Below, piece after piece: positions 25,486 to 61,639 of a stretch of 64,000 nt of DNA. The position numbers and the translations under genes were made by a program. The first letter of the stretch is position 1. Each line of letters starts with the position of its first letter. Source of the DNA: Papaver somniferum (taxonomy: Eukaryota; Streptophyta; Magnoliopsida; Ranunculales; Papaveraceae); assembly GCF_003573695.1 (NCBI RefSeq), contig NC_039361.1, forward strand, positions 94,428,279-94,492,278, in the 5' to 3' direction. Under the pieces are notes generated by a model that saw only the letters and a program-made list of their open reading frames with translations, had not been told where the DNA came from and ran no database searches.

Positions 25486-27568
25486 TAGGTTGAGCGACTG
25501 GTGTTCCTCGTGCTGGCGCGCTGCTGGTTCGGTCATGGAGCGGAGGTATTGGCACAGTACTTGTTCAGCTATGGAGCATGAGTGTGGTGCGTCCAGTCAT
25601 CTATTCCTGTTCTTTGAGCAATAAGGAATCCTTATTCTGTTCAAACTCTAGAAATTGTGTTCGTATGAAAAGGGGTATCGACCCTCTTTTGTTTTTTGTT
25701 GTTCATCCGGCTCCGTGCTTTCATCTGCAGTATCTGGCTCCTCTTCGTCATTTGTTAGCGGTGGTAGAACGAGCATTAATGGCAACAAAACAACCTCCAA
25801 TAGTTATAATCAGCAGCAAGGAAAGCCAGGAGAACTCAAAGTAGGTGCTCTCGCATGTATCCACCCAACAGTACCATCGATCTTTTCCAGAATGTGTAAT
25901 AAGGTTCTGACTCCAGAAGAATGAGTATCTGACCTCTCCAGTGGATTTCAAAATTTAACAAAATCCATTGACTCTTGGGATGGATGGATGAAATAATGTC
26001 AGGGCTAATCTTGGAGATTGTAGTTGCGTTGTTGGTTCATCCTTGACTTTAGGATATTTGGTACATAGACTTTCTGATTGCGATGATGATATGATGTGGA
26101 TGCTTGTATGGTCGAAATCTTCCGAGCCATTGGGTGAAATAGATGAGTTAAGAGACGTTCCATTGCCGATGTTCTGCTATCAAGTCTTCAACGACTTCGT
26201 TCCAAACGACATCAACTATCTTCTGAATCTTGGGCTATTGCATGGAATGGGATGCGGTAAGCAGTCCCCAGTTATACTTCTGTTAGATCCGATGGCGTGG
26301 CCGGATATGTGAATGTATCTCTGTGGCGGGCTTTCGGAGTCTTTGATGCACGTGTACGGCTTCATGTTAAAAAAATTCTTGCGGCTCGTAAAACTTCAAC
26401 AGTGATGATGTTGAAATCGGGAATAACCTGGTTGAGGGTAGTGAAGGCATGCCATTCTGGTAGTCCCCATGTGTAATTATCTTGAGCCTATTTTCTCGTG
26501 GAAGATGTGCTTCTGCTGCATTCACTGGTAAGGTAGTGACTGCGTTTAAGCTTCTAAATATGAAGGAGGCTTCAATCCCCAGGTGTAGTCTACTTTAATT
26601 GCATCGCCTTGAATCCAAGCCTAAGAGATTTGATAAAATCTTATCATACTCTCCTGGATGTGATGTTGGGATGCTTGGAATATAACATGGAAGAAACATT
26701 CTGGATAACAAAGAGGTAGAAGTGAGAGAGTTATGTCGTTAATCGTGGCTCCCTCTGTCTCTTCAAGAAAAATGTTTCAGCCGCGTATCTGGAGTTATCT
26801 CATGAATGCTTGATTTTTTTCGGGAATGGACCGTGATGAGCAGTCCCCGGTCGCACTTCTCTTTGGTTATTGAAGTTGTTTTCTCTGAGTAGGCTTGGGA
26901 TCCGCCGCGGCCACGTAAAGTATTGCAGGCGCCTTATAGACAGAGAGGTGATGATATTCTTACGCTACACCTTTGAAGGGTGGATGACCTTGTCGTGGCT
27001 ATGACTTTTTGGTGGACCGTGTCTTCTGAGCTTTGACAGTGAAGGGATCCCGTGTAGATCCCCAGTCCCCAAGTCTGGTTTACATGTTTCTAACTTGTAT
27101 GGTCGGTGAGTTGACCACGATAAAGACATCATCTTGCATCCTCACTGGTGACTCTATTACTTCTTCCACGTGAAACTTTGTAGTGGTTGTTGCTATGGAA
27201 AAGATCTTGCTGGTATCGACAAACGAGCAACAACAGTTCTTGGCAGCAGATGTGATCAGAAGAGACTACATCGTCGCAGGAACCAAAATAGGTTGCTTGA
27301 ATTGCATGGGCGTCCATGGAAGCAAAGGGATCGGCTGGATGCGTAAGCGAGTAAACTGTCCACGACCACGAGGTTTGGCGATATGGATCAAAAGTGGCCA
27401 CAACCGCGATCCTTGGTTGGCTGTGATTACGATCCTTGACAGGGAGGAGTGTGGTAGCTACGGTCACGAACCTTGGAAGGAAGGGGTGTGGCGGTTATGG
27501 CACGATCTTTGGCAGGAAGAAGTAGCGTTGAAACTCCTTCGACTCTTGGAGAGGACGTTGAAGCTTAT

Positions 27569-38032: not shown

Positions 38033-38034
38033 AT

Positions 38035-41081: not shown

Positions 41082-43009
41082 TGTGGATGGGGAAAAACGA
41101 TTCTCTGGTTTTTAGGGAAGTGAAGAGACAAGCGTTTTGTTGAGACTCCTCAACCGAGAAAACTGTTCAACCTTACACAGATGCACTGCAAAGGGAGTGC
41201 TTAGATTCGAGAGATCAATCTGTAGGACTCCGACCTAAACCAAGTGAATCGCCGTTCCAGAGTCAATTCGGTCGCAAAGAGGGAGACGGGTTGATCTATA
41301 GGAGGGAAGCTGAGAATTATGTGGGATCAATGATGATCAAGGATTGTGGATGTGTTGAAGGTTTCTGCCAGTTTCTGTGAACTGATGAGATCGAATAAGT
41401 TCTGGTAGTTTGATGAATTCTTGAGAGTAATTACTCGAGAAATTATGTGTAGACGACTGTTGATGTCTTTCAATCATGGATTCAGAGATTTATTTATATT
41501 GTCAGAATAGTAAACACCTTGATCCCTGTAAGTGTGACGGTTTCTCGAGTGAAAGAGTGGAAAGTGGAAGATCATGGTGAAACCAGTTCCAGGTCGTGCG
41601 GAGACTTGGTTAACCGTCCACCCACTACTTTGCTAACTCCTTCAACCGTTGCACGACTTACTCACATTTCTCATCGTGGATGAATCCACGTGCCGTAGGC
41701 CACCAGACCAAAACCCTAATTGATATCCCCCATGTGACGTGATTGATCTCTCACGAATCGTGGACTCTGCATGACAGACATGTATTTAGTTAGTCAGTTG
41801 TTGACTGATTAGACAATGAGTCTAGGTTTTGTTGAGTTGAGCATGAATGACAAATGCTCAGTGGTTCACGAATCGAACATGTCTGTTGAGACGTAGTTCT
41901 TTGAATAATGTTGACATTGCGCGTATTAGCAAAGATTGTAAATTCGGCGACTGAGCGTCGATTTGAAGAATTACCGAATATTGATAGTTTGAGCAATATT
42001 CAAGAAACTGATCAAGTATTGCTCAATTCGACAATTACTGATAAATTACTGAATATTGATAGTTGGATCAATATTCGACCAATTGAGCAAGTATTGATCG
42101 ATTCGACGGATTACTTATTGGTAACGTGACCCAATAAAATATTAATTAAAATATTGGTAGATTACCGAATATTATATGATTGATCCAGATGTTGATTGCT
42201 GGATCAACATAAACTTATTAGTGTTTGAACTTTCTCAGAATGATGATTTGTGGAGCGTTTGTTCAAAATCCTAATTTTTGATCAATTGTTTGTCAATTGA
42301 CGAATCGCTGAGAATAGGTCATGAGTGTGGGAGGAACCGACCACATGGGACGATGGACGTCCATGTGGTTCCCAAGTGCTCGAGTGAGCATGCACCAAGG
42401 TCCTTAGTTGACCGGTTGGTGAAAGAATGATGATTAAATGCCGGTTTCATTATTTATTGAAATAGTGCTCGATCGAGCATTAGGTGCTAAAACCTAATTA
42501 TGGAAAAGTGAGGGACCGACCAGGAGGTTATGAGACCGGCCCTTGGTGGTCACGGGACCAATGATGGTTGTTTGAGAAAATTCCAAGTCGGTTGGAAAGA
42601 GTTTGGGACCCAATATGAGTAATTGAGCAAATTAGGTCAAAATTGTGAACATGTGTGGCACCGGCTCTTTGCAAGCCTTAGGGACGCCCTTGGTAGGTCG
42701 AGGGAGCATGCCCGTGTCACCATAATGTCCACGTCTCAACCCTGAGAGTTTCGGTATTTTCTGGTGTGCGTTTGAGCAATATTGTGGATTTTCAGAAGAG
42801 TTTGATCTTGACTGAAATTCTTGATTTTTTGCTCGAATGAGCAAGTATGCTCGTTTGATCAATATTTCGTGAATATTAAAATAATAATATTTTAATATAT
42901 TTTCGTGAGTATCTTAGTCGGTCGTGTGACCATATTGAATTTTGGCTTTTTCATGGTTTGAGAAATATTTGAGAAAACATGAAGAAACCATGATTTTTGC
43001 TCAAAATGA

Positions 43010-43540
43010 AGAGTTTCATGAGATGAGGAAAATAATAATTATGAAATACTAGGGATTGCAAGGTGTGGGACCGGCCACGGCTAGGGCATGGCCGGCCGTC
43101 CAGGTAGCCCGGTCCCACACCACCTTTTCCGTGTTTTGTATTATTATTTTTCATGAAACCGTGAAAGTAAAGAGAAACCATGAATTTTGTTGAAACGGAG
43201 GAGTTTCATGAGATTAGAGAAATAATAATTATGAAAGACAAGGGATTGCAAAGTGTGGGACCGTCCACGGCCAGGGCATGGCCGACCGGCTAGGTTGCCC
43301 AGTCCCGCAACACCTTTCCCTATTTTATATTATTATTTCTCATGAAAGCATAAAAATATGGAGAAACCGTGAGTTTTGCTCAAACAAGGAAAGTTTCTAT
43401 AATGAAGGAGTTTTCATGAGTTCATGAAAATAATAAAAATAAGGAAAAGTAATGGAAGAGGCATGGGACCGGCCACGGCTAGGGCACGACAGGCCAGCCG
43501 GTGGGACCGGCCCATGAGCGCCTCTTTATTATTATTTTAA
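43010..43540. repeat. About 200-bp tandem repeat with GC-rich foldback, three copies
   Basis: Three units start near 43010, 43200 and 43400. Each has gtttcatgag, a run of aataataat, then a GC-rich core. In the first unit the core arms aaggtgtgggaccgg (about 43060) and ccggtcccacacc (about 43109) are complementary, with tattattatttttcatgaaac as the outer arm. The second unit keeps most pairs and the third fewer. Confidence 0.75.
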
Positions 43541-43779
43541 TATTATTATTTTCTATATCCTGTTTTGTGTAGGATTCCTCATTGGTCCATATTTTTCAAT
43601 GCTCGTTTGTGCATTCGGGTGCTCGGTCGTGCATCATTGTTGAGTGTACTTACACCATTTTATGGTGCTTACTCAGTGATGGTCCATATGCCCGATTGTT
43701 GAGTATTTATTACTAATTTATGAAATTCAGTGGAGAATGATTCATGAAACTGAGTAATAAAAGTGAGTAGTTTTTTATT

Positions 43780-44030
43780 ATCAATCCATAGGATCAGCCG
43801 TGGATTCGACCATGAATTCGGAATAATAAAACGAGTATTACCATTTCATGGGATCGTGGGTTCGACCATAGAATCGGAGTAATGAAAGTAGTTATTACCA
43901 TCCCATGAGATCATCCTTGGATTCTATCATGAAATCGGAGTAATGAGATTATCTATTACAATTCTATGCAGCCGTGGATTCGATCATGAAATCAGAGTAA
44001 TGAGATAAAATAGATTATCTTCTAGGAATT
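43780..44030 (-). repeat. About 62-bp tandem repeat in C3 LTR
   Basis: Four degenerate copies of gaatcggagtaatga followed by ttattaccatcccatg and a gtggattcgacc block. Confidence 0.75.
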
Positions 44031-44099
44031 CAGTGGTGAATGTCACGGTAGAATTAATCTATCACAGAAGGGATATTAGCTAGTTAAAGCGTCATACCC

Positions 44100-44415
44100 A
44101 TCCTGAAAGGTGCATAGTCAGTAAACAGCGAGTGTTGTCGAAGTCCTGAAGGCGTTATTGCTCTCAATATCACGGAGAATCTCCTGAATCCATACACGGT
44201 CTCTCTACATAGTCAGGGAACAGTGAGTGTCACCGATGTCCTGAAAGCGTTGTTTCTCTCAATCTTACGGAGAACCTCCCAATATTTCTTCTATGTAGAG
44301 GTGGGTCTCTCTATATAGCCAGGGAATAGCGAGTCACCGACGTCCTGAAGGCGTTGTTGCTCTCAATCTTACGGAGAATCGCCCAATTACGTTAATCTAC
44401 ATAGAGGTCATGATG
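44100..44415 (-). repeat. About 115-bp tandem repeat in C3 LTR
   Basis: Three copies of the block catagtcagggaacagcgag ... gtcctgaaggcgttgttgct ... cttacggagaatc, at about 44105, 44212 and 44315. Confidence 0.8.
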
Positions 44416-44575
44416 AAATGCGAGGAATCGAACGTTCAGCTAGTGGAGGCCTTTCGAGAAACATATTCATCATGGATCGTAAAATATGAATCGTCACATG
44501 CCTGAAAGTCGCGTCAGAAACATGCAGTGTCATGATTTTACGATTTTGACCTTTGTTGAAAATCCACCATCTACA

Positions 44576-44590
44576 TTAATTCCCCTGCTT
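44576..44590 (-). other. Polypurine tract of C3
   Basis: Minus strand aagcaggggaattaa directly before the LTR start. Confidence 0.75.
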
Positions 44591-44896: not shown

Positions 44897-45062
44897 TATA
44901 AAAGGTAAGTAACCCGAAAAAAAAATTTATTATTGATTGACCGACCACCCTCTCTTCTCCCTCACGCTCGAGAAGAATTTTTTTTTTTTTTTGTGAACAC
45001 CGGAGCTCCACCTCCACCGACTGCCGCTGGCCAATTTCCGGCGAACTCCGGCACCGACAAAG
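44897..45062 (+). promoter_or_regulatory. Promoter and leader exon of the PMD gene in C3
   Basis: A TATA-like tataaaag (44897-44904) is followed by a CT-rich leader (ccctctcttctccctcacg, about 44948) and a splice donor AG|GTACAT at 45062/45063. A leader intron would run to an acceptor just before ATG 45972. C1 has the same plan: TATA on the minus strand at 57208-57215 and a donor near 57118. Inference from sequence signals only. Confidence 0.5.
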
Positions 45063-45971
45063 GTACATAAATTTTTTTTTGTTGTTGTGTGTTTTTTTAT
45101 TTCATGAGTTGTTCATAAAACAAAATTCCCATAGTTGTATGCATGCGTAGGTTTTATGAAGAATTTTTTTTCAAAAACGTATATATGCTTGTTCGTTCGT
45201 TAGTTTAAGAAACGAGCAAAAATCCCTAATATGAAAGAGATACATGAATTATTGAATAGACATGGTCTAGTTGCAGTAGAGAAAATTTTGTTTATGAGGT
45301 TTCATGAAAATCCAAATTTGTTTTAAAAGCATGAACTTTCGCAAATACTTTTAGAAACGTAGGTTCGTTCGTAGTAAAAGTAATAAATAATGATCCTTAG
45401 AGTTAAAGGAATTTTGAAAAGACTTGTAGTTCATGATAAAATTTATTTGTGAGCTTTCAAAATTTTATTTGGAATATGTGGACCCTTGCAAAAATAGAAA
45501 AGACCCTAATTTCATAGACAAATGCTTGTTTGAGCAAAACAAGGTTTTTTTTTTTATTAACTCACGTAAAAGAGGAATTTTTTTTTACACATGAGTTTTA
45601 ATTTTTGATAAAAAATAAAATAGCAATTTTTGAGTAACTATTAGAGATAAACAATTTTATTTTATGATGTGTGTTTGCGGCATAAATCATGGAACGTTCA
45701 CATGCAGAGTTTATGTGAATTGTTCATAATTTCGTGAAAAGTCAGTGTTTACTCTTGAATGATAGGTTTTTTCTCACTTTCGTAGGTTTGAAAGAGTAAA
45801 AAAGTTTTCGGAGTTTTACGTTGTTATCACTAAGTTCGTGAAACTATAAATAGGTAATATTTGAGGATTACCATTTTGTAGACGCTGATATGAGCATCAT
45901 AATTATTCAGCTGCTTTAATTCCATTGTGTTGACGAAATTCATGTATGGATGTCACAACAACTTTGCAAAG

Positions 45972-48900
45972 ATGACTCATTCTCGTGGTAGCGCTTCTGA
46001 AGATGATGTTTCTAGATAGGGAACTCCCAGAGAGGATGTTTCTACAGACGCGTCTTCCAGGAATGATGATTCTTCCAGAAATGATGATTTTGAGACTTCT
46101 CAGGAGAAAGAGGAAACTCCCAAAACTAAGAACTTTCCAAATGCTGAGGACAAATTCTTTGTGTATCTGTATAGGCCCAAAAACCGTCCCTTAGGTTCCT
46201 CGTTTAGGCTGCTTATAAATCCCAGGAGCACTACTCAGAACAAGTTGGTATCTCCTCCAGCAATAACTCGGTTCTGTTTGCAAGGGAAACATAATTTGGC
46301 TTCACATGTGGAACTCAAACTTTCTCGGAAGCCTCTGACACATTTCTCTAGATGGGCGAGACACATGCTGGGTCACAGCCGTGTAAAGACCTCGCTGGAT
46401 CGTGCACATGTGACACGAGCTATTCAAGCTGCTGAGGATTTAATCATTAATCATGATATACCAGGTATTGTGGATTTACTTGCGCGTTCGTGCATTCCTA
46501 ATAATACTTTCATATGCAGATGGGGAGAATTCACCGTTACTTTAGAAGATGTAGTTGCTTTGTTGCATCTTCCAGTCACTAGCAATTTCCCTGAAGAGAT
46601 CTCAGCTGAAGAAAAGGTGATATCATGCGTATTGGAAGCTAAAATGCACAAATTCAACGAGTCTCCCAAAATTTGCCATGCTCAATGGTTGAGATACTGG
46701 TGGCCGAGAGATGGAGTTCTTGAAGAACCTGTTGATGGTACCTTGAACATTGCTGCTTTCTTATGCTTGTGGCTCTCCAGAGATGTTCTTGAAGACAGTG
46801 GACATTTGTTAAAGACATTTGTGATTCCTTTCACCATAAAGATGGATAAAGGTGAGAAGATTCCCATTGGTAGTCTATTTTTGGATTCACTGTTTGCCAA
46901 TTTAGACTCCTTAGTTATAGACTCCAGCATCTCCAACGGCTTCATGAAAGTCGAAACATATGCTAATACTATGGTCCTCCAAGCCTTGATGTTGGAGCAT
47001 CTTGAGAGTTATGATCCAATTCCTCATAGCGTTTTGCAAGGACCCAATGTTGATACTCGTCCTGCTTTCCTCGAGAAGAATAATGCCAGGATTATGCATT
47101 GGTCTACAAAGCAGCCACAATACAACATATGCCTCACTGACATTTTAGACATCGAATCCGAGTTCAACTTTCGCCCCTGGGTGTCGGTCCCTCCTCTTTT
47201 CTCACAATTGATCAGTTTCAATACTGCTGAAGAAAATGTCATGTTGAGGACTAGTGCTGACCTGAATGACGGAGAGAGATCTTTTATATTGAGTTGCACT
47301 CCTGCTTACTTAGTATCAGTAATGCATGGAGAATTCCAGGTAGAAGAATATAACATCGATAGGGCAGCTCGAAAAATGGGAGTCGAACAGTGTGTTCCGG
47401 GTCATCGAATGAACAAGCCGTCAGTTGAGCATCTGAAGGCTCACTTAGATTGCACACATGTGGAGGGAGATGATTATTTATTCCCATGCTTTGACCGAGC
47501 TACCTATGTTACTCCGGGTTACATAGACTTATAGCGTCAACAACTTGAGAGCTTATATAAGTTTACGATGGATGTCCAGTCTTCGGTACGAGAATTTCCT
47601 CCCCCTGACATGATTTCTGATCGACCAAGGTTGAAATATCTTTCCCTTGGTGACAAAAGGAAAACGTCTCCAGAATATGCACAGGGAAGTGCTTCCCTCA
47701 TGATTTTTACAAAGGTATGACGATCGCACTTTAATTATTCATTGACTTTGTGATAGGATGGCCGTGCTGTGAGACCTCGAATCCATGCAAACTTCTTAGA
47801 TCTTCAATAAAGTCCCCAGGGCGGAGAAGGAAGGAGAAAGACATCTTATAGGATGATACCGAATAATGTGCAGTTCCCAGCCACTTCTTTGGTGAGTTGT
47901 TAGCACTTCCCTTATCGTTGAGATTTTCTTATCCATGTAATTAGGATCCTAAAAGAGTATTGTTAATTTGTTTCAGAATTTTGCTCCATCGACCATTGAC
48001 GGTCTTCACCTTGTTTCTAAAAGAACAATCCAGGAATCCAGCACCGATGATGAAGTGGATGTAAGTATCCTTTGTGTAAATGATTATGGATTTTCCTTGA
48101 TTGAAGTAATGACGATTATTGTTGACGTATACAGGAGGAGATTGTTGTGTAAATCCAACATGGTCATGCTATTCATTCGTCTTTGAATGGTGGTGAGAAA
48201 GAGAATCCTCAAGAATCGCGACTGAATGGAGATAATGGCGCTCCCAATGTTGATGCCGACCCTGTTAACCTTTCGAATGACTTGGAGACCCCTCAAGTAA
48301 GTATCCATTTTGTATTATCTTCATATAAGTATAAGGTTTCTGATTTGTTGATATAAAAATAAGAATTCCCATGAATAAGTGAAAAAATTTACCGAAATAC
48401 ATCACCAGAAAATTCAGAACTCAACATTTAGTAAAATTGCCATAAAATCTTCATCTAATGTCGGATTTTCGCGATCTACCCATGTATCCTCATACCCAGG
48501 AAATTTCCAAGCTTTTTCAAAGAAACTTTTTGAGTTTTGAGCAATTTTAGGGGTCGAAATAAGCAAAATAATAAACTTCCAGGAGACTTTCAGAAAAATT
48601 TCAGCTTGCATGTAGTTCGATGTTTTGGTCACATCGTTTTACTCGTTTATCCAATTGCTATGAAATTATGATATGTTGTAGAAAACATCTATACAAAGAG
48701 AATGGTATATGACGTAACCTTATATTCCTTACCAATTGCTCCCAGTTCGTCGTTTTATACAGGAAAGTGTAAAACTTCTTCAGACGAGCTTGTTGAAAAA
48801 CGTGTTTTTATGACTTCAGTGTTGTTTGCCCATATATTGAGCATATAATAAAGAACTTAGATGGTGTTCACTCAAATTCTAGAGTTTATGATTTCCTTTG

Positions 48901-49693
48901 GTTCTTATGCTTGAATCCTTCTAATCTCATGTAACCTTTGTATTAGGCGCCAAATGCCGAAGTTGAGAATAACAGAACCAATGTTGATGATTTGAGCAAT
49001 ATGGAGAATCAAAGTAGTGGCATCACCAGCTCTGCACCTTAGGGTCATGAGAATATCACTGCTGAAGCCGTTGAGGAAACTGAGACTTCAGTTGCTGTTG
49101 AAGTCGAGCAAAGAGCAGAAGAGACTGTTCTAGAAGAAGATGTTACAATGACTATAGAGGCTTCTCCAGTAGTTGACAATCGTATAGTAATACACGAATA
49201 TCCCAATGCAGGAATTATTTTTGAGCCTCCATTTGGTGCGCTACTCATATATCACGTATCTGTTGGCGGATTCAGCGTTCCCACTGGGTACGCCAATATG
49301 TATGTGAAGTTGTGGAAGATGTATGGTCATATTGTCGTTACAAGAGACGTTGTACACAGCTACTTCCTGATAATGCAATTAGGAAACATATTGCGTGTCA
49401 TAGATGATATTCGTACCAGGGCCAGAAGTACCGTCACTCGAGATGTACTCTTTGATTGGGAGTAAAACTTGGATAAATCTGAAGAACTTGGTTTTAACTT
49501 GAAGTGGCTTCGTCAGAAGATCAACACCATCAAGGATGCATTAGTGAAGAACATACCTTTTACCAGTGATGCTATGGTGAATAAAATAGTCAGGATTGCC
49601 AAGTTGACTGAATAGATGGAGTTGGAAAAAGCGGCCTTGCAAGTCTTGGATAATGTTGAGAAGCAAAAATCATACTTTGACGGCTTCCTTTAA
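45972..49693 (+). pseudogene. Plant mobile domain (PMD, PF10536-like) gene carried antisense in C3
   Basis: Five exons are supported by GT-AG sites: 45972-47714, 47757-47891, 47977-48060, 48135-48296 and 48947-49693. An acidic N-terminus is followed by the PMD (about residues 65-480): PGIVDLLARS, FICRWGEFTVTLEDVVALLHLPV, NIAAFLCLWLSRDVL, IPIGSLFLDSLFANLDS. The last exon encodes a separate conserved part (IIFEPPFGAL and GGFSVP) and a coiled tail. In-frame stops lie at 46017, 47532, 47808, 49040, 49463 and 49613. PMD proteins of plants (MAIN and MAIL1) act in the nucleus in silencing and gene expression, and PMD genes are known to be carried by transposons. This copy is antisense to its element. 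The longest intact stretch is 457 residues (46161-47534). Confidence 0.85.
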
Positions 49694-50069
49694 TTTTACT
49701 TTCCATAATCTCTTGAACTTTGAACTTCTGAGAGATGTAAGATCTTATTTTAGTTTTGGTTTTCTTGTTGGTTTTGGATAAGTGAATGACTGGGGATTTT
49801 CTTTTGGATTTTGGATTTGATAGATATTTTTCTTAAATAAAAGAACTTTGATAAATTGTTGAATTCAAATACTGAATGCAAGTATTGCAAACGTTTTGGA
49901 GGAATTGAAAATACAGGTAAAGAAAATCCTAAGATGCAAACTCCAGATGTCTTGAGCATTTTTCATGGATATAAAACACGCAATGTTGAATGTTTCAGGC
50001 GTCGAAAATCTTGAGCTAATTCTCATGAATCACTGGTATACTTGTCTTGCCCTTCATGTCAGCCAATTT
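49694..50069. other. Spacer between PMD gene and retroelement ORF
   Basis: About 375 bp, A/T-rich, with no gene seen. On the plus strand it would hold the 3' end of PMD transcripts. Confidence 0.4.
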
Positions 50070-50780
50070 TTAGTATCCTCCAACTACTGACTTAGCAATC
50101 ATAAAAGGCCTTTCCCAGTTAGAATTCTTTGTGGAATGAAAATTACGTTTAGTTGCCTTAAGAACCAAATATCCTTCACATAACTTGTTAGGCTTTGTTG
50201 CTCGTGCCCTGAATATCTTATGTTGGTTTGGAATTCCTCGTACGGTGGGATTCCATGTTGGTGAAGCTTTCCAATTCTGCAGCACATGTGGACACTCGTG
50301 CAAGGGAGAATATTTAGGATATTGATTGTGAAACTCGGTCATTATTCCAGCAATGACTGTGTTAGTGAGACGATGGATTCGTAGAGGTTCTGTATCTAAC
50401 CATTTGGTGAAGTATTGTTGAGGTGAGACTAACCACTCATAACATTTTATGATAGCTTGGTCATGAGTAAGATTGAGTCCCCGGATAAAGGTAGCATATT
50501 TGAAAGTTGATAATATAGACGCATGAGGGAGAATAAAACTTACCTGAGTGCGGAATCTTCTGACAAATTCATGTGCGCTTTCTTCAGGTTTTTGTGTAAG
50601 TCCTATCAGGGCTTGGACTTTCTCCAGATGCTTGAATGGTGGAGCATCCTCTATTTCTTCCGAGTCGGAGATTTCCTCTGAGTTAGAGCTTTCAATAACA
50701 TATAAGTGTGCAATTGAAGATATTGGAGTTACCTTTTCAGCATGAATCCATTTCCGTATAAGGATCATATCATATCCTGG
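50070..50780 (-). pseudogene. Mosaic retroelement ORF of C3 (protease-like, gag-like and integrase-tail parts)
   Basis: A 232-residue frame is open on the minus strand from ATG 50768. The first residues (DMILIRKWIHAEKVTP) resemble the end of a Tat-type retropepsin region (the ILLGRPWIH style). An acidic linker follows, then a gag-like block (KPEESAHEFVRRFRTQ, then ATFIRGL). The end (GYLVLKATKR and NSNWERPFMIAKSVVGGY) resembles the integrase C-terminus. The order is abnormal, so it is probably a deletion mosaic. The frame remains open upstream across the C1 insertion into 63939-64000. The assignment of each block is by resemblance only. Confidence 0.55.
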
Positions 50781-50989
50781 TGTTGATGGTGGTTTTTAGC
50801 TTATGGTTAAAATCGTAAAACCGTACAACTGGCATGACATCACTATGACCATTAACACATTTATTGAATCGATCAGCATGCCTACGTAAGAATTACCAGG
50901 GTACCTTTTTTATGTGTCATGTTCCACGGAAGAACCCTTAACATTGACCGAAATCATCTATGCCAAACCCTAATTCTCATGCTTCCGCG

Positions 50990-51400
50990 CCAAGGCATGC
51001 CAACCATGCCAGCCGCACCACTGTGCCAATGGCAAACCATGCCAGTCGCACCACTGTGCCAATGGCAAACCATGCCAGCCACATCTCCGCGCTAAGGCAT
51101 GCCAACCATTCCAGCCACACCACTGTGCCAATGGCAAACCATGCCAGCCACATCTCCGCGCCAAGGCATGCCAACCATGCCAGCCGCACCACTGTGCCAA
51201 TGGAAAAACATGCCAGCCACATATCCGCGCCAAGGCATGCCAACCATGCCATCCGCACCACTCTGCCAATGGAAAACCATGCCAGCCACATCTCCGCGCC
51301 AAGGCATGCCAACAATGCCATCCGCACCACTGTGCCAATGGAAAACCATGCCAGCGACGTCTACCGCGCCAAAGCATGCCAACCATGCTAGCTGCACCAT
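50990..51400 (+). repeat. 69-bp tandem repeat in C1 5' LTR
   Basis: About six copies built on ggcatgccaaccatgccagc, cgcaccactgtgccaatgg and ccacatctccgcgccaa. The period of 69 is a multiple of three, so several frames stay open across the array on both strands (23-residue repeats). Those frames are a by-product of the repeat. Confidence 0.9.
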
Positions 51401-51499
51401 GCGCCAATGGCATGCCAAACCCTTGGCTCCACCATGCCAAGCCAACCACACCTTTCCTTGGCCCCAACCATGCTAGCCGCACCATGCGCCAATGGCATG

Positions 51500-52510
51500 C
51501 CAAACCTTTGGCCCAAAACCCTAGTTATGGCCACGCCAAACCGCGCCAAGGCATGCCAATCACCTTGCCGCGCCATACCATGCCGACCTTCCCCATGTGG
51601 CTACCAAAACGAAGGCGTGCGACGATCAACGGTCACCCTTCCATCCTAGATGCAAATCCTAGCCGTCCAAGGTCGCCAAACAACGCATGGTAACCTTTGG
51701 CCCAAAACCCTAGTTTTGGCCACGCCAAACCGCGCCAAGGCATGCCATCCCACATGTGCCAATGGAATGCCAACCACCTTGCCGCGCCATACCATGCCGG
51801 CCTTCCCCATGCGGCTACCAAAATGAAGTCGTGCGACGATCAATGGCCACCTTTCCATCCTAGATGCAAATCCTAGCCGTCCAAGGTCTCCAAACAACGC
51901 ATGGTAACCTTTGGCCCAAAACCCTTGTTTTGGCCACGCCAAACCGCGCCAAGGCATGCCATGCCACATGTGCCAATGGCATGCCAACCACCTTGTCGCG
52001 CCATACCATGCCGGCCTTCCCCATGCGACTACCAAAACGAAGGCGTGCGACGATCAACGACCACCCTTCCATCCTAGATGCAAATCCTAGCCGTCCAAGG
52101 TCGCCAAACAACGCTGGTAACCTTTGGACCAAAACCCTAGTTTTGGCCACGCCAAACCGCTGCCACATGTGCTAATGGCATGCCAACCACCTTGCCGTGC
52201 CATACCATGCCAGGCCTTCCTTATATTTCTACCAAAACGAATGCTTGCAACAATCAACGACCACTTTTTCATCTAAGATGCAGATCTTAGCCGTCCAAGG
52301 TTACCAGCTAACGCATGACAACCTGTGGCCCTAGTTTGGTCGCGCCTAAACAAATCCAAAACCCTAACTTTTGGACGTGCCTAAACTGGGCCATATTAAA
52401 GCCTTACTGATCATACTTTCATGCCACTGGCTACCAAACGAAAGGTTGCAATAATAGACGGATACCTTCCTCTTAAGATGCAAAATCTCGACCGTTGAAG
52501 GTCACCACCT
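51500..52510 (+). repeat. About 216-bp tandem repeat in C1 5' LTR, five units
   Basis: The marker ccatcctagatgcaaatcct recurs at about 51641, 51855 and 52069, with decayed units near 52270 and 52470. Each unit also has ggccacgccaaaccgcgcc and a ctaccaaaacgaaggcgtgc block. Confidence 0.88.
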
Positions 52511-52836
52511 ATCCGGCAAGTCTCTCAAGCTCAACTTTCCAGACAACAACAACATGCTACATGTTTTCCACGAAAACACTCGAGACATCAACACATGTCA
52601 CAAACTGGGGGATGCTCATTGGGTATTGGTTTGGCGGTTTATAGCTTGCGGCGTACACTACGCTCGTTATAAGAAATTGTCATAAGGATGAGGCGGTTAG
52701 TAAATACAGGGATTAATGGTGAAACGCTTTCTTTTATGGAACATCAATTCCAAGCATTACCGGTTACCACCACCTTCCATTTACTCACCCGTTTTCCATT
52801 TCTTAATGAGACCAGAGTACGTTTCACTTCGACTTG

Positions 52837-52844
52837 TATAAATA
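52837..52844 (+). promoter_or_regulatory. TATA box of C1 5' LTR
   Basis: tataaata in cttgtataaataggc, identical context in the 3' LTR at 63555-63562. Confidence 0.65.
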
Positions 52845-53217
52845 GGCATTACCTATTTCCACCGAACAACAAGTTCTGGTCAGGAGCATACGACACTCAG
52901 AAAACGTTTGCTAGCCTTCCCATCTGTTAGCTTCCAACTTTTTGATACAAGTCACAAAAAAAATACTCTTCCAGAACCAACTATTCTGGTCTCGACACTC
53001 TCTTCGCTTCCCTCCCCAAAACCAACCCTTCTCCTCCTCTTTGTGACCGAAGCAAGTCTGGAACTGCCGTTTCTTGGTTTAGGCCGGATTTGTACAAATT
53101 GATCTCTCGAATCTAAAGTACTCCCTTGCAGTACATTGTTTAGGGTTTAGACTCGTTTCTCACCCACACGCCCGAAATTACCGAAATCAGCAGAAACCGT
53201 TTTCACCCTCAAACAAT

Positions 53218-53234
53218 TGGCGACCACAGTGGGA
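53218..53234 (+). other. Primer-binding site of C1
   Basis: tggcgaccacagtggga 2 bp after the LTR end, the same as in C2. Tat/Ogre-type site. Confidence 0.8.
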
Positions 53235-53879
53235 GATTGATCTTTCGGTTACAATGTCAATTTTTGACCATCGATCTCATGCTTCGACCCAGACATCAAG
53301 GCGGTAGAAGCAGGCGGTCCGCTCAGGGATCGACGACTCAGTTACCAGACGACCCGATTATCAGTCTTGACACGACGAGGAATGACTGTGGACTGCCTAG
53401 AGGTTAAAAGAGAATGATCCAACCAGGGGTCGACGACTCGATTATCAGATGAGACGACTGGGGACTTTCCACAATCACGGAGGTGCCTCCCGTAAAACTC
53501 GGTCTTACACCCGGAAGATTCCCTTTTCATCAGGAGACCTGAAAAACCGAGTAAGTCTTACCTAGACAATGGTTTGTTATTTCAAGTTTTCACGGGAATG
53601 ATAAAACCGAGAGCCATGTTATATTTCACCCCATGTCATCTATCGACACACAACACTCACGGTTCCATGGTTTTCCTGGGATGTTTACGTCACTTGCAAT
53701 CGTAACCAAGACAACATCATTCCCAAAAAAATCCATTCCAAAAGAATAATCCAAAACCCTCAAGGTAACATTTGTCTATCAACCCAAAAATCCAGGAAAT
53801 CAAAACCATAAACTAGGCGTTTCATTTTCCTTTCAAAAAAAAAACCTAAAAATAAGAAGTTCAGAAGACAGAAATACAT
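53235..53879. other. C1 region between primer site and PMD gene 3' end
   Basis: A short start-like frame (MLRPRHQGGRSRRSAQ, ATG 53279) corresponds in place to the gag start of C2 but stops at 53407. An imperfect direct repeat (tcgacgactc with attatcag) lies at 53331 and 53430. Otherwise I see nothing. Confidence 0.4.
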
Positions 53880-56566
53880 TCAAGGAAAGTTTTTCAACAG
53901 TGGCTTGCTCTTCTTAGCAAGAGCCTCCTTCGTGCTTTGGAGATCCGCCCTCTTCAACTTCAGCTTCCTGGAAAAATTTTCGACTTCTTCTTCCTGCTTC
54001 TTCACCATATCCGTAGAAGGACCTTCGACTATTTCGACCAACAACTTTTCAACCTCAGAGAAACCTTCAACGAACCAAGGAACATTGAACTCGAAGTTTA
54101 CACACATGTTCCGATGGAACCTCGAGCTCGAGATTACATCCTTAGAAATAGTATTACCGGTCATGTTGCACATATCGTCAATCAAAGACAAAATTTCCTC
54201 CACACGCTTAACCAACGCATGTTTGGATGGAACGATAAATCCCCCGATCAACACATGATCCGAATAAGGAACCAGGTATGGAGGGTTGAAAGTGGCGCCC
54301 GCGTCTACATAAAAAACCGGCAAGGGATTCCTAACGACAATTGCACATGCGACCGCTAGAGTACTCTCCATTGTCTGAGTCACAACGATGTTTTCATCTC
54401 GATCAACATCCATTTCAAGGTCGCCCGGTGCGGCTGCCACAATTGGAGACAAAGCTGTATCACCACCAGTCTCTGTCTCAGGGCCATCTTCAGAAATGGT
54501 TTCACCTTATGACATCACGGATTAGATATTTTCCAAAGAGAAAGAAAAAAAAACACATGCGGGAGACTCACTGATTCGCTTTCAGACTGGCTAGAGGAAG
54601 ATTCAACACTGCTGTCAGAAAAACTACTCTCACCACCACTGAACTCTGAGCTTTCATCCTTCTCGAGTTCCTGATCGCCACGGATAGGCTCAGCACCGCC
54701 ACCCTCCGTCTCGAGCAGCGATGTTTTATGACTACTTGCAAGTTTGGTAAAGGCGTTCACGTTGCTGAGACCCTAGGCAAGATACAAAGACGGATACTCA
54801 GGAAAGAAACAAGGATATACACGATCCAACTAAAGTCAAGAGGAAATCACACGTACCTGCATATTGGACGAACTGAAAGTCGGTAGGGATGTAAGAAACT
54901 GACTGGGAACCATCTGCACAGCTTTTAGATCTTCGGTCCTTCACTTGGGGACTATCTACATTCGGGCTAACGGATTTTCTCTCGGGCGAAGAAGGATCCC
55001 TCAGCAGTGGATGCTCCGCTAAAACCGCAGGAGAAGGCTTACCGCGACGGTTTTCTACCACATCATTCACGAATCCATGGAAAACGAGAAACTCATTCTG
55101 CCAGAATATGTTATATTTGGAGGTTGTAGATGGATTTCGTTCCGCAAGCAGGAAAGGGAGACTTTTACCCGACACAAGAACAGTAGCATCGAGAACAGTT
55201 GGCAACGAGACTTCTGGAACAACCGGCTGACGAACAAGTGGGATCCCTTGGTCAAAACCCATATGCCGATCCGCCATATCGATATTATAGGAGACTGCTT
55301 TGCAAGATCCTCGAAAGAAAGACGGCACATAACCGGGCGTGCAGCTTCGCATGAATACCATCTCTCCAACACTCATATCCTCTTTATCAGAAGACAAAGA
55401 CATTCTCGGAGCAGGAGCAACGGTACTGATATGAGTTATGGACGCATGCACTGGATCCCATGGAGGAAAATTGACCGTGTGCAAGTTTTCAAGGAATCCA
55501 ACCAGGTTCGAACCAATCTTTGGGAGCCTATCCGACCAGCGCAGTATCCTAGAGCCACCCTAAGACTCGGGAAGTACGGCCAACGGTTTTGGAGCATACC
55601 TTTCGAAGTGCTCCCACATCCATGCTTGGAGAAAGGCGGCATGAACATACGAATCCACTTTCATGTAACCATTTGAAGCGCACATGTCCGCGACCTGCTG
55701 ATCCAAGTGTGTGTACAGAGAACCAAGAAACAAGCCGCCAATAGGGAGAACGACACCTTTTTCCAATTTTATGGAAAACTTGATAAGTTCCAGTCTTATC
55801 TCCTTCTTACCCGAGACGTCATCGAAAATATCTCTGGATAACCAAAGAGCCAAGAACGCCGCGACATGAAGCGTACTATTCTTCTGATTCGGCTCCAACC
55901 CATCAGGAAACCACTGAGACACCCACCATCCATAGAAGAACCTCATCTCGTTTTATTTCCGAACGAATCCTTTTGATTTCACAACCAGAGCGGTGCACAT
56001 TTCTTCTTCATCTGCAGACAATTTGACATCGAGGTTTCCTATTACAGGAAGGTTCAGCAACACGGCCACGCTCTCTAAGGAGATAGTCATTTCACCCCAC
56101 CTGCATATGGCCATGTGAGTGTCTGGACACCATCTAGAAATAAAAGCAACCAAGCCTGGAATATCTTTCCTATTTGAAGCACTGCGGAAGCCGCAACATC
56201 ATCAATGATCTGCGCCTTGGTCAAACTGGCTTTTACACATTCCTGGCTCATCATGAATCACATCCATTTCTCAAAGGGATGCAATGGAATCACGGAGATT
56301 TTAAAGTCAATAGGAGAAGCATGATACTCTTTCCTCTGAAGACAAAATCTTATTACACCTCGTGGCCGAACCGACTGGGCCTCTCCTTCACTTTTCGGAC
56401 CAGTCAGAAGAATCGACACATACTTGGGATGATTTCTCCTAATCGTGGCGGATGTTGTAAAGAACTCATCATCTATGTTTGGATTGGAATTTCCAACATC
56501 TTTCGGTACGGCAGAACTTTTCTCAAATGATATCCTAACAAAAATTCTCTCACGCTACTTCCACAT
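53880..56566 (-). pseudogene. Plant mobile domain (PMD) gene carried antisense in C1
   Basis: Exons on the minus strand: 56566-54857, 54772-54573 and 54505-53880, with GT-AG borders. Exon 1 encodes the PMD: VIRFCLQ, then IPGLV, CRWGEMTISLESVAVLLNLPV, VAAFLALWLSRDIF and LPIGGLFLGSLYTHLDQ. Exon 2 is Ser/Glu-rich. Exon 3 encodes the same C-terminal part as the C3 copy (FNPPYLVPY, GGFIVPSKHA) and a Lys/Glu-rich coiled tail (EEEVENFSRKLKLK). Breaks: TAG at codon 4 (56557-56555), a TGA near 56247, a frameshift near 56180, TAA at 55955-55953, TAG at 55562-55560. It is homologous to the C3 copy but clearly diverged. The reading of the start codon is an inference. Confidence 0.8.
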
Positions 56567-57109
56567 TCGAAATAACTACAATGGAAAAATACGAAGAGAA
56601 ATTATTACGGAAAGTGCATGGAAATTATTTTATCAGACACATGAGATCCATCCTGGATGCAAGTTAATTTGTTTCAAAGTCATAATGCGCATAGGCAAAG
56701 AAATAGGGACAGAAAGACCCTGCATCACCTCCTTATGGCAAGACCGTACCCTGCAGCGGGAAATTTGCGCCCGGCCGAGGAGGCACGCCCCACCACGGGA
56801 ACCATACACACGGTCACACCTGGAAAAAGAAGTAAACCCTAGAAGCTAGGTTTTCGCGGGAAGGGAATGTCAATTACCAGCTCATGCATGCCTACTTTGC
56901 ATGGTAATTGAGGCGGCCAACATTACTACGGTGTTCACGCCTAAATGTTACTACAAGTTTGTGCAAAGCATACCTACCGCTAGGATTCATACCAACGCAG
57001 AAGGAACATTTATACAAGTTCATGAAAAGGTACGCCTACATCTAGGGTTTGCACTAACACAAAAAAAAAACAAAAAAACAAGAAAAGCAAGTCAAAGAGG
57101 AAGTGTTGG

Positions 57110-57215
57110 AAGACGTACCTGGGATTCGCTCGTCCGCTTTACTGTTACCACACGGACAGAATAAAAAAAAATATATAGGTGTGAAGTAAAAGAAGAGGCC
57201 GGCCCTCTTTTTATA
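57110..57215 (-). promoter_or_regulatory. Promoter and leader exon of the PMD gene in C1
   Basis: On the minus strand a TATA box (tataaaaag, 57215-57207) is followed by a leader and a donor CAG|GTACGT near 57118. An acceptor (ttccattgtag) lies about ten bases before ATG 56566. The layout equals that in C3, which supports a real captured gene with its own promoter. Confidence 0.5.
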
Positions 57216-57299
57216 GGCGTAATACTTGGAGGTTTGAATAAGGAAAAGACTTCCTATTTGAGTCAAGTAAGGAAAAGAGGCAACCGGGCCCGCGAAGAC

Positions 57300-57640
57300 C
57301 AATCACCATGCCAAGACCGTCCGCGCCATTTCCTTGGCCCCACCACGCCAAGTCGTCTGCCATGAGGACCGCGCCATGCCTTGGCCCCACATGTCAAGCC
57401 GTCCGTTGCCTCACCAAACCGCGCCATTGCCTTGGACCCACCACGCCAAGCCATCCGCCATGCTTGCCTCGCCAGGACCGCGCCATGCCTTGACCCCACA
57501 TGCCAAGACGTACGTGCATGCTTTGCCTCACCAAACTGCGCCATTGCCTTGGCCCCACCATGCCAAGCTGTCCGCGCCATGACTTGTCGCACCAACACCG
57601 ACAACTCGCCAAGCCAGCGTCATGATGTTCCCTAACCCAG
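57300..57640 (+). repeat. GCC-rich degenerate tandem repeat in C1 internal region
   Basis: Four or five degenerate units of about 80 bp with cgcgccatgccttggcccca, ccacgccaagccgtccg and similar. Related in style to the LTR arrays but a different unit. Confidence 0.7.
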
Positions 57641-57861
57641 CCAAGGTGATGCATAGCCATACTAAGCCGACGATCTTCATCTCACCACTTCACGGTCTAC
57701 ACCATGAATAGAATCTACGCAAGGACGCCAAACACGAGGATCATGGACTCTCCTTACCTCTCAAAAAAGGTTAGTCGGATCTTCCTGACCCGCCGCTTCG
57801 ATTTTGTCCTTGTCTGTCACCATCTTATGCTTACCTCGCAACAATGCTCCTGTTCCGAGCT

Positions 57862-57876
57862 AAGAAGGGGACTTAA
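57862..57876 (+). other. Polypurine tract of C1
   Basis: aagaaggggacttaa directly before the 3' LTR start. Confidence 0.8.
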
Positions 57877-58001
57877 TGTTGATGGTGGTTTTTAGCATAG
57901 GGTTAAAATCGTAAAACCGTACAACTGACATGACATCACTATGACCATTAGCATATTTATTGAATTGATAAGCATGTCTACGTAAGAATTATCAGGGTAC
58001 C

Positions 58002-60969
58002 TGATAGGGTGTAGAATACATCCTATTTATTATCTATTGTTTATGCTTTCTATGCTATTTTTCTTGTAAATTATGTATTTTACGCATGTTTTTGAGTTAT
58101 TAGGTACTTTGGAGTCGCACGGAGAAAAAGAAGAAGAAATCACCCAAATTGAGCCGAAAGAGCAAAAATGTCATTTCATGGGAGAACACTATCTAGAGCC
58201 CAGTCAAGCTTAAGGGGCAACTGTTGGGAGGAGTGCTAAATACAACGAACTGTGGTTAAGGGGTGGCCACATGTTATAGGATATCCACTAGGGTATCCTC
58301 CTAGCCTGCAGTGGGGTACCGTTATCCATCCCTAAACCACCTAACCCTAAAACCGAGAGTTTATTCTCTCGTTCCTCATTTTCTCAATCATTAGTTACAC
58401 CTGAAACAAAGAAACGGAGGCACAACCATGGTGGATTTAGATCCAGAGAGAAACCAAAAAGAAGATGGTTGAAGGTGATGAAATTCAGAGCTACAGAAAA
58501 TGGTGATGCTTAATAAAGTCGAATTGCAGTAGAAGATTGATGAACCAAGGAATGTTGGGTTCGATTTGAAATCAGGAAACTAGGTTTTAATGGCTGTAGT
58601 GGAATCGAGAATGGGTTTGATGGTGCTATTGGTGGAATCGAGAATGGGTTTGAATCAAGAAAGAGGATCTGAGATTTATAGAAATCGAAGATGGAAGAAT
58701 CTGTTTGAATAAAAAGAAGTTGAAATGGGTATAGACTGGATAAGAATCAGGGTTTGTTTGAGAAGATAAAGATGATGGTCATCTTGAAGTTCAGATCGAG
58801 AAGTGAAGAAATCTGCTGCAGTCCAGCTCGATAATTGAGTAGCATATGCAAATGGGGTTTGAAATGGATCTATGATTTGAATTCAGCACAAAAGAGATAG
58901 GTTCTGTTTCTGTTGATGAATCCGAGAGATGATGATGTTGCAAATGGAATTGATGGGGTTCTGGTGATGAAGACATGGAAGAATTGATGTCGTTGTTGAT
59001 TCGAGCAAGACATGGAGATGAAGAATGGTTCTGTTGTTGTTCGAAAGAGAAGAATTGTTGAGAAGCAAGGATGAATTGATGGGTTCTCGCTGCAATTGGG
59101 TTTATGGTGGAACTGAATCTGAGAGATGCTGGTGTTGTTGGTGACGCTCAAGGGTTGGCTGAAATTGATGTTGTTGTGAGTTTGGAAACAAATAGAGAAG
59201 AAATGGGAGTTGCTGTACAGGGAATGGTTTATGGGTGGAGGTCTGAAATGTTGATGTTGTTGGTAGTGTTTTTGTTTTTGAATTGAAGAACAACAAGACT
59301 ACAGGAATGAAAGAAGAATTGTAGTGTGTGAAATCAAGATATGATAGATGTTGGTGATGCTGTGAAGAGATGGAATTGATTATATCAGAAGGGGTTGTGT
59401 TGGTGCTGCAGCAAATCTCAAGAACCGAGTAGCAGATGATTATGGGTGTGTGACTGTGCTGTTACAGGGATGAATGAAATGTTGCTTGAGAACTAGATGC
59501 ATGTTAGGATTGTCACAGGAGAAGACCAAAAATAGGCCTGAAGTTGGACTGAAATCGCCCTGAAACGGAGGAAACTCTGTCTAAATCTTCCCTCTGATGA
59601 GTCGACTCAGAGATTCAGATGATTCGTAAGGCCTAACTCAGCTGAGTAAGACCAGTTAGCCGAGTAAGATGCTAAATCGGTGTCTGACTTCCCCTTTCTT
59701 TGACCCAGTTGACTAACATAAGACCGTTAGCTCAGCTGTTAACTTTAACGTCCTCCGACGGAATATTCCGTGACTGAGAAGAGGATTCTTGCGACCGGCA
59801 GCACTATTCCGGTGTCGTTTCAGTCCGGATTCCGGTGATCCCGAGTACTTTTCCAGGCGAACAAAAGTGCATATATTTGTGAAGAATTCTCTAGACTCAT
59901 GGGTTTGAGGAATTGGGATTGGATATGGAAAGAGAAGATGGAAGATTTGAGAAAGACTTGGATTTGGAAGTTGAGCTACAAAGGGAAAGGGATTGTATTC
60001 CTAAGAGGATTGCAAGGATATTGAAGCCTATAAATAGAGAAGTTCTCTACACACTTTTGCACACCTCTCTACACACACAACATTTGTGTTTTTGCTTGCT
60101 TTCAAAATTCTTCTTTTAATTATTTGTATGAACTTTAAAAATTCTCCCTTTAATTATTTGGGTGAATTTCAAAAACATGAGTAGCTAATTTTCTTATTGA
60201 TTGAGGATGAATTCCTAGTTCTTAACATGTTTTGAGTTTTGATTTTAAATCTACTTTGAAGTTTTTCACATGATTATCGTTTGTTTTTACTAATAGGAAT
60301 ATTTATACATTCATGGTCGATTGATAGATTGTTTAGGAGGCCAACTAAATTGATTTTTTAATTGATCTAGAGATAGTGAAAGTTAGGGGATAAGTAATCT
60401 TTTCTTGACTCTTTATATAAGTAGCAAACACGAGACCTTGCGGGGGGATCCCGTGGAGCAATTGTGTGTGGAAACAACGTTAGCAAGTAGACCTTGAGCT
60501 AAGAGTCTAACTACTAATATCAACCTAATAAATTCATAAATCTTAATCCGTTTAACTAAATTACATCATGAGTGAGCTACTACTAGGTGGTTTGGTGAAT
60601 AGAATCCGGTAGTCGAGAACTTCTGTATCCAGTGATACTAGGGATTTAGGGGTTTAGCACTGAGCTAGATGCTTTACCTACGGTTGGTGATAATCTGTGA
60701 CTAATAAAATGTGGAAAAGAACATAACTTGAATCATTGTTTTGCAACGAAGAAGGATTCCTTGATCTAATCTCTCTTATTGATTTCAACTTAAACTTTTA
60801 ATTGTTTTATTTACTTATTTTTTTAAGTCTAAAACCAATCCTCCCTTTTTGTGACAACTAAACAACTAAAACCTCTTGGTCCTCGTGGGAACGAACTTGA
60901 CTACACTATATTACTTGTTAATTAGGTGGAAAAATATTAATTAATTTGTTGTGGTTACGACTCGCATCA
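58002..60969 (+). mobile_element. Solo LTR of an Athila/Tat-type gypsy element, family E
   Basis: 2968 bp from TGATAGGGTG to gactcgcatCA, flanked by the perfect duplication gtacc (57997-58001 and 60970-60974). The 5' LTR of C1 shows the unoccupied site. A TATA box (tataaata) lies at 60029-60036, and the end carries cctcgtgggaacga, common near LTR ends of this group. No primer site or coding region lies beside it. The open frames inside it are short and unconvincing. Confidence 0.93.
60029..60036 (+). promoter_or_regulatory. TATA box of the E solo LTR
   Basis: tataaata in gcctataaatagaga, about 0.94 kb before the LTR end. A possible outward promoter toward the right part of the C1 LTR. Confidence 0.55.
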
Positions 60970-61059
60970 GTACCTTTTTTTTAAGTGTCATGTTCCACGG
61001 CAGAACCCTTAATATTGACCGACATCATCTATGCCAAACCCTAATTCTCATGCTACCGC

Positions 61060-61540: not shown

Positions 61541-61639
61541 GTATGCCAAACCCTTGGCCCCACCATGCCAAGCCAACCGCACCTTTCCTTGGCCCCAACC
61601 ATACTAGCCGCACCATGTGCCAATGGCATGACACACCTT

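What the first reader, a model, noticed from the sequence alone, without database searches (positions are those of the whole stretch)
44897..57215. Two LTR elements carry the same kind of plant mobile domain gene, antisense and with its own promoter
C3 (reverse) and C1 (forward) both have a PMD gene on the strand opposite to the element. Both genes show TATA box, leader exon, leader intron, long PMD exon, then short exons and a conserved C-terminal part. They are clearly diverged, so the cargo was present in the family before the two copies split. Known: PMD genes occur both as host silencing factors (MAIN, MAIL1) and within transposons, and Tat elements often have extra ORFs. Inference: the element may spread or use a host-derived silencing-related protein.
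Basis: partly seen in the sequence, partly recalled or inferred. Interest (0 to 1): 0.85.

Follow-up and report, generated by a model that had tools for sequence, protein, structure and literature searches.

The report
Poppy retrotransposons with antisense PMD genes
Two decayed jumping elements in the opium poppy genome each carry, on the strand opposite to the element, a plant-mobile-domain gene with its own promoter signals; both belong to families that lack the copying enzyme in the copies examined, and in one of them the gene was clearly kept by selection.

Summary
C1 (forward) and C3 (reverse) are real LTR elements, and each carries a Plant Mobile Domain gene (PF10536) on the opposite strand beside the 3' LTR. 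Antisense extra genes, and PMD genes in Ogre/Tat elements, are published, so the kind is known. What the tools add: the genome is opium poppy. C3 is complete (TSD GGTTC), with gag and PMD but no recognisable pol; E5, E7 and E9 share this layout. C1 has neither gag nor pol; the 39 other C1-type copies scored (of 4652 candidates) run LTR end-PBS-PMD without gag. TATAAAAGG is conserved in C3-type (4 of 4) and in C1 relatives (3 of 3). In C3-type copies dN/dS falls from 0.45 (close pairs) to 0.12-0.14 (distant pairs): long purifying selection in a lineage without pol. Within the young C1 burst dN/dS is 0.83-0.96, so no selection is visible there. C1 and C3 PMDs are cut off from the other poppy PMDs sampled by a long, fully supported branch, which argues against separate captures. 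Both window genes are broken. A protein acting for the element in the nucleus is the likeliest role; function is untested. New variant of a known kind.

The parts
50781..53215 (+). C1 5' LTR (TGTTG...CAAACA); TSD CCTGG at 50776-50780
53218..53235 (+). C1 primer binding site TGGCGACCACAGTGGGAG (tRNA-Arg type; the tRNA identity is recalled)
   Evidence: same site in E9 and after the C2 LTR
53883..57215 (-). C1 antisense PMD gene from TATA (57215) to the end of the conserved C-terminal exon (53883); broken by stops and a frame change; lacks about 70 bp near 54219 that the other copies have
54798..56554 (-). C1 PMD exon region; one open frame of 585 aa in relatives L060-L063, PF10536 at 120.6 bits in L061 and 113.8 in L063
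57862..57876 (+). C1 polypurine tract AAGAAGGGGACTTAA
57877..63933 (+). C1 3' LTR, interrupted by a 2.97-kb insertion at 58002-60969 (TSD GTACC); right TSD CTTGG at 63934-63938
41082..44575 (-). C3 3' LTR (its 5' LTR lies beyond the window, L039:5295-1967; 93.9% identical over ungapped columns)
44576..44590 (-). C3 polypurine tract AAGCAGGGGAATTAA
44897..44905 (+). TATA box TATAAAAGG of the C3 PMD gene, invariant in C3, E5, E7 and E9
44925..45062 (+). leader exon of the C3 PMD gene (start approximate); donor GT at 45063
45942..47693 (+). C3 PMD exon (ends approximate); ORF 46023-47531 is PF10536; its 3' donor is not GT in C3
47757..49692 (+). short downstream exons and the C-terminal exon (about 48947-49692) of the C3 gene
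50070..50775 (-). C3 gag-like C-terminal part (Retrotrans_gag 15.9 bits, below cut-off); continues at 63939-64000 and in L039 on the other side of C1
16216..24526 (-). C2: one LTR with PPT on one side and PBS on the other, split by a LINE
25887..25986 (+). PMD relic of C2 about 1.36 kb from its PPT
   Evidence: 68.6% over 105 bp, E 3.5e-8

Best explanation
C1 and C3 are dead copies of two non-autonomous, probably Ogre/Tat-like, LTR retrotransposon families of opium poppy. Both descend from an element that carried a PMD gene beside the 3' LTR, on the opposite strand, with its own TATA promoter and several introns (signals shown, transcription not). C3-type elements kept gag and PMD and show no pol; C1-type elements kept PMD alone (shown for the copies examined). 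They must therefore borrow pol in trans (inferred). Because the gene is antisense, the genomic RNA carries its introns reversed, so they are not spliced out and survive reverse transcription (inferred; the introns are present in the copies compared). The protein would be made from its own mRNA, act in the nucleus and favour the element's own expression or persistence, most likely by competing with or redirecting host PMD-dependent chromatin control (inferred, weakest step, about 0.35).
For: PF10536 in both. Ends, PBS, PPT and TSDs. C3 collinear with E5, E7 and E9 over gag-PMD-PPT at 64.5-65.4% DNA identity (6.16-6.48 kb aligned), with no pol among the 10 open frames scanned and no room between gag and PMD. 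Of 19 gag-PMD rows within 20 kb, 18 (the window's C3 included) have gag downstream and on the opposite strand, 12 of them with a gap of 2.42-2.71 kb; 2 of the 6 longer gaps were read, both nested insertions at the same junction. C1-type: 3 of 3 copies read and 39 of 39 other scored DNA matches run from LTR end over PBS into the PMD C-terminal exon. TATAAAAGG conserved in both types and 7 of 9 splice sites checked in C3-type. Median dN/dS falls with divergence to 0.12-0.14 in C3-type PMD; tree-wide 0.26; gag part C3 against E7/E9/E5 0.17/0.18/0.32. C1 and C3 PMDs apart from the other poppy PMDs sampled.
Against: Within the C1 burst dN/dS is 0.83-0.96, so selection on the PMD-only unit is not shown. 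No transcript evidence was available. No helper element with pol plus this PMD was found; the one element read beside an RT-like motif has a different antisense gene. The gag label rests on Pfam hits below cut-off. Absence of pol rests on layout, on the scanned frames and on a negative tblastn with one 50-aa RT-like piece. PMD function is unknown even for the host proteins; no 'DOWN' motif enrichment. The structure model failed (pLDDT 30.7). C1 LTRs (92.6% identical) are no younger than those of C3 (93.9%) although C1 sits in C3: dates are rough.
Confidence: 0.72

Rival explanations
1. Hidden masters: autonomous gag-pol-PMD elements exist in poppy and bear the selection; the pol-less copies are repeated by-products.
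For: Neumann 2019 reports PMD in 57% of Ogre elements (passages), and LTR_Stream lists an Ogre set in Papaver (section 7). Close pairs look near-neutral.
Against: C3 and E5/E7/E9 (synonymous sites near saturation) align through the gag-PMD junction, so one old pol loss is simpler.
Confidence: 0.2
2. Passenger: the PMD gene has no function in these elements now and is only copied along.
For: C1-type dN/dS 0.83-0.96; many copies with stops; both window copies broken.
Against: C3-type distant pairs at 0.12-0.15 and conserved promoter and splice signals; 15 of 20 PMD exons fetched had no stop, but I chose mainly stop-free rows.
Confidence: 0.15
3. The antisense transcript, not the protein, matters: it makes dsRNA that tunes the element.
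For: Proposed for antisense aORFs by Vicient and Casacuberta 2020 (passage).
Against: Would not conserve amino acids over synonymous sites.
Confidence: 0.05
4. C1 and C3 captured host PMD genes independently.
For: MULE elements captured PMD-C genes twice according to Ikeda 2017 (passage).
Against: Same place, strand, TATA box and C-terminal domain; both cut off from the 15 other-class loci and the two-copy L031/L032 PMDs in the tree. The tree is unrooted: the long branch leaves from the C1 side (support 94), so a root inside the C1/C3 side is not excluded.
Confidence: 0.03

Closest known systems
PMD extra ORFs of Ogre (Tat) elements; PMD-A1/A2 clades (Steinbauerova 2011, not read; Ikeda 2017 and Neumann 2019, passages)
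   Same: PF10536 gene in an LTR element with a tRNA-Arg type PBS
   Different: Neumann's survey classifies elements by their polyprotein domains; here pol was not recognised in either family, and C1-type lacks gag too; introns and promoter signals are shown by comparison
Antisense aORF-3R with its own promoter (maize Grande gene23, rice RIRE2, Retand TRP28)
   Same: Antisense gene between coding region and 3' LTR; own promoter and nuclear protein in Grande (as reviewed in PMC7264820, passages)
   Different: Domain is PMD, not TRP28; TRP28 had 0 matches among 41 candidates in this genome, but the control genomes were silent too, so its absence is not shown
Papaver Retand non-autonomous Group I (GAG+PROT) and II (no GAG), PMC12582370 (section 7 and passages)
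   Same: Pol-less families in the same species, one mainly GAG and PROT; C3-type may well be a Group I sublineage (inference)
   Different: The words 'mobile domain' and 'antisense' do not occur in the main text; C1-type shows neither GAG nor PROT
TR-GAG / LARD elements (recalled; TR-GAG seen in a search listing only)
   Same: Non-autonomous LTR units without pol, mobilised in trans
   Different: As recalled, they are not defined by an extra protein gene

Membership tests
Plant mobile domain (PF10536) | HMM score over the curated cut-off | tested here: met
   96.9 and 44.0 bits against 34.9; C1 relatives 120.6 and 113.8
Ogre lineage (Ty3/gypsy Tat) | tRNA-Arg type PBS | tested here: met
   TGGCGACCACAGTGGGAG; tRNA identity recalled, link of Ogre to tRNA-Arg from PMC9289625 (passage)
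Ogre lineage (Ty3/gypsy Tat) | RT-RH-aRH-INT phylogeny | not testable with these tools
   no pol recognised in C1, C3, E5, E7 or E9, nor between LTR end and PMD in L060-L062
Ogre lineage (Ty3/gypsy Tat) | PMD eORF | tested here: met
   found in 57% of Ogre elements in PMC6317226
Retand | antisense TRP28 (PF04195) ORF between pol and 3' LTR | tested here: inconclusive
   PMD instead; TRP28 0 of 41 candidates in the genome, control genomes silent too
Antisense aORF-3R with own promoter | antisense gene next to the 3' LTR with promoter and splice signals | tested here: met
Antisense aORF-3R with own promoter | antisense transcript | not testable with these tools
   no RNA data held
Non-autonomous LTR element | LTR, PBS, PPT and TSD present, pol absent | tested here: met
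   absence of pol with the limits given in the Against line
Host MAIN/MAIL (PMD-C) | groups with genic PMDs | tested here: inconclusive
   C1/C3 lie across a branch of 2.2 substitutions per site, support 100, from 15 other-class loci and the two-copy L031/L032; no named MAIN/MAIL reference, tree unrooted

The most novel reading that the evidence does not exclude
These are accessory-only retroelements: units that shed their whole replication machinery (C1-type) or all but gag (C3-type) and persist because the one protein they keep, an antisense spliced PMD protein, acts mainly in favour of its own family, for example by shielding it from PMD/MORC-dependent silencing.
Probability: 0.2. Interest if true: 0.75.

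Novelty: new variant of a known kind. Interest (0 to 1): 0.45.

Why it matters
Selection on a protein gene in elements that cannot copy themselves is hard to explain unless the protein helps its own family; poppy offers thousands of first-look candidate copies in one genome to test that (16431 and 9849 for the two PMD queries; only 85 and 150 were scored). It also bears on the question left open by Ikeda 2017, whether host silencing PMDs came from retrotransposons or the reverse.

Tried and rejected
Tried without result: PDB sequence search of the C3 PMD, one hit at E 0.044 to a thioredoxin, not credible. AlphaFold model from a 10-row alignment, pLDDT 30.7, not used; second job not spent. Three searches of the 5.8-billion protein set gave only Papaver proteins where a source named the organism (in 24 and 39 only about 8000 candidates were scored), so no named host PMD was obtained for a tree. 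Plasmid tblastn: none. The 'DOWN' motif printed in PMC9899485 is not enriched: no exact copy, two one-mismatch copies over eight regions. NCBIfam: none. One element read beside an RT-like motif for the same PMD: none there; the RT label is a recalled motif, and Pfam gave no hit to the 50-aa piece.

Considered and rejected: that C3 is forward and shares an LTR with C1 (PPT, PBS and TSDs show nesting); that the long gag-PMD gaps hold pol (2 of 6 read, both nested insertions; 4 not read).

Known weaknesses: 5 of 12 C1-type rows were out of frame in their 5' part, which inflates dN; one search repeats the test on the in-frame 252 aa. Sequence choice favoured stop-free rows (15 of 20). The gag comparison covers 125 codons. 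In one search the PMD-exon donor was looked up at a wrong column; it is taken. The TATA search in the C1 relatives used C1's own string and missed their form, which one search shows.
Full report
What is there. The window is part of G000 contig C4 (94428279-94492278); contig lengths equal those given for Papaver somniferum LOC113 proteins (for example 176451499 and 216867838), so the genome is opium poppy. C1 runs from 50781 to 63933 in forward orientation, with LTRs, a tRNA-Arg type PBS, a PPT and a 5-bp TSD with one mismatch. Its 3' LTR holds a 2.97-kb insertion with its own TSD GTACC. C1 lies inside the gag region of C3. C3 is reverse and complete: its 5' LTR, degraded PBS and most of gag lie in the 8 kb to the right of the window (L039), its 3' LTR ends at 41082, and GGTTC flanks both ends.

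The PMD genes. C3's ORF 46023-47531 and C1's piece 55560-55952 pass the PF10536 cut-off. The genes share a second conserved C-terminal exon region. The C3 gene is broken by stops and has a non-GT donor after the PMD exon; the C1 gene has stops and a frame change. A third element, C2, keeps a short PMD relic 1.36 kb from its PPT. In a four-way alignment of C3, E5, E7 and E9, ATTAGGTTTTGGAAA and TATAAAAGG are among the four longest invariant runs of a 5' region with 33% invariant columns, and 7 of 9 splice sites checked are GT or AG in all four; one acceptor is not AG in E5 and the PMD-exon donor is not GT in C3. E7 and E9 are near-identical, so this is three independent lineages. In the C1 relatives L060, L061 and L062 the TATA place also reads TATAAAAGG, while C1 reads TATAAAAAG.

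Architecture of the families. E7 and E9 have perfect TSDs (CTTAC, CTAGT) and LTRs 95-97% alike; E5 is a tandem LTR-internal-LTR-internal set whose left flank reads like a gypsy RT (recalled motif; Pfam silent on the 50-aa piece). All three read LTR-PBS-gag-antisense PMD-PPT-LTR. Ten open frames from the gag side of E5, E7, E9 and C3 gave no RT, RNase H or integrase; gag is supported only weakly (Retrotrans_gag 21.8 bits in E7 and 15.8 in E5, an aspartyl protease hint of 17.9 bits in E9, all below cut-off; the two L039 frames of C3 gave nothing). A 50-aa RT-like piece found no match in the window, L034-L039 or L060-L062. C3 aligns to each of E5, E7 and E9 across 6.16-6.48 kb including the gag-PMD junction. 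Between the 85 PMD places (85 of 16431 candidates scored, the window's own included) and the 150 gag places (150 of 12750), 19 rows lie within 20 kb; 18 have gag downstream of the PMD gene and on the opposite strand, 12 with a gap of 2.42-2.71 kb; the other row pairs a PMD with a neighbour's gag. Two of the six longer gaps were read and are nested insertions; four were not. The remaining PMD places are untested, not lacking. C1-type: 40 of 4652 candidates were scored with a DNA query running from LTR end to the PMD C-terminal exon; apart from the window itself 38 of 39 match in one piece from the LTR end to query base 1064-1070, and one in two abutting pieces. L060, L061 and L062 are collinear with C1 from the LTR to upstream of the TATA box and have no gag there.

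Selection. 33 C3-type PMD exons (C3; 20 of the 84 other places, 15 of these stop-free by my choice; the 12 of 30 loci that match C3, E5/E7/E9 among them) gave 528 pairs. Median dN/dS by dS bin: 0.45 below 0.2 (71 pairs, range 0.19-1.32), 0.24 (36), 0.19 (39), 0.15 (79), 0.14 (22), 0.12 for 1.0-1.5 (35), 0.14 above 1.5 (239); the other 7 pairs fall in no bin (saturated). Pairs are not independent. One ratio over the tree is 0.26. The gag part of C3 against E7, E9 and E5 gives 0.17, 0.18 and 0.32 over 125 codons; E5 against E7 and E9 0.20 and 0.21; E7 against E9 0.49. C1-type: 12 copies, tree ratio 0.83 on the long frame (5 rows out of frame in part) and 0.96 on the in-frame 252 aa, median pairwise 0.91 at median dS 0.07. 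C1-type against C3-type differs at codon positions 1/2/3 by about 0.47/0.41/0.67, so the gene was constrained before the burst. The simplest reading is that source elements are selected and copies decay neutrally; for C1-type no selection since the burst can be claimed.

Origin. On 162 columns, C1-type and C3-type PMDs lie on one side of a branch of 2.2 substitutions per site with 100% support; 15 of the 18 loci that do not match C3, and the two-copy L031/L032 PMDs (perhaps genic), lie on the other. The tree is unrooted, holds no named MAIN/MAIL protein, and the long branch leaves from the C1 side (support 94). This argues against separate captures and leaves open which way the gene moved between host and element.

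Known and new. PMD in Gypsy elements and in 57% of Ogre elements, antisense aORFs with their own promoter, and non-autonomous GAG/PROT Retand groups in Papaver are all published (PMC5418596, PMC6317226, PMC7264820, PMC11963269, PMC9289625: abstract or passages; PMC12582370: section 7 and passages). In searches of the held library I saw no listing of pol-less elements with PMD as their kept gene, nor of its dN/dS there; most listed papers were not opened, subscription papers are mostly not held, and Steinbauerova 2011 and Gomez-Orte 2013 were not read.

How it may work. Shown: position, strand, promoter and splice signals, selection in C3-type. Inferred: helper pol in trans; introns survive because the gene is antisense to the genomic RNA; nuclear action. 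Ikeda et al. speculate that MULE-captured PMDs serve anti-silencing, and MAIN/MAIL1/PP7L sustain MORC1 expression and TE silencing (PMC9899485 passages), so interference with that route is my preferred but weakest step.

Noticed in passing
window 58002-60969: About 2.97-kb insertion in the C1 3' LTR, ends TG...CA, TSD GTACC; probably a solo LTR or short LTR element.
   Followed up: partly
window 16216-24526: C2: a single LTR with PPT on one side and PBS on the other (internal-LTR-internal), split by a LINE (DUF4283, RVT_1, zf-RVT).
   Followed up: partly
L033/L034: E5 is a tandem LTR-internal-LTR-internal PMD element whose left flank reads like a gypsy RT.
   Followed up: partly
L073:832-4630: The region downstream of an RT-like match carries a different long antisense, partly coiled-coil-like gene and no PMD.
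   Followed up: partly
P0012, P0018: Poppy gene models that join a PMD piece to other domains (PF02992/PF13963; an SDH assembly factor): probable annotation chimeras.
   Followed up: no
L001-L010, L012, L015, L016, L018-L021, L026: 18 PMD loci that do not match C3 at E 1e-3; most form a separate multi-copy class scoring higher against PF10536 than C3. Their carrier was not determined.
   Followed up: partly
places such as G000:C9:30138049: PMDs whose two halves (profile about 13-183 and 179-347) match separately, some hundreds of bases apart; likely an intron or insertion shared by a further class.
   Followed up: no
window 4089-15075 and 27571-40775: Several nested Copia-type fragments in both orientations.
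   Followed up: no
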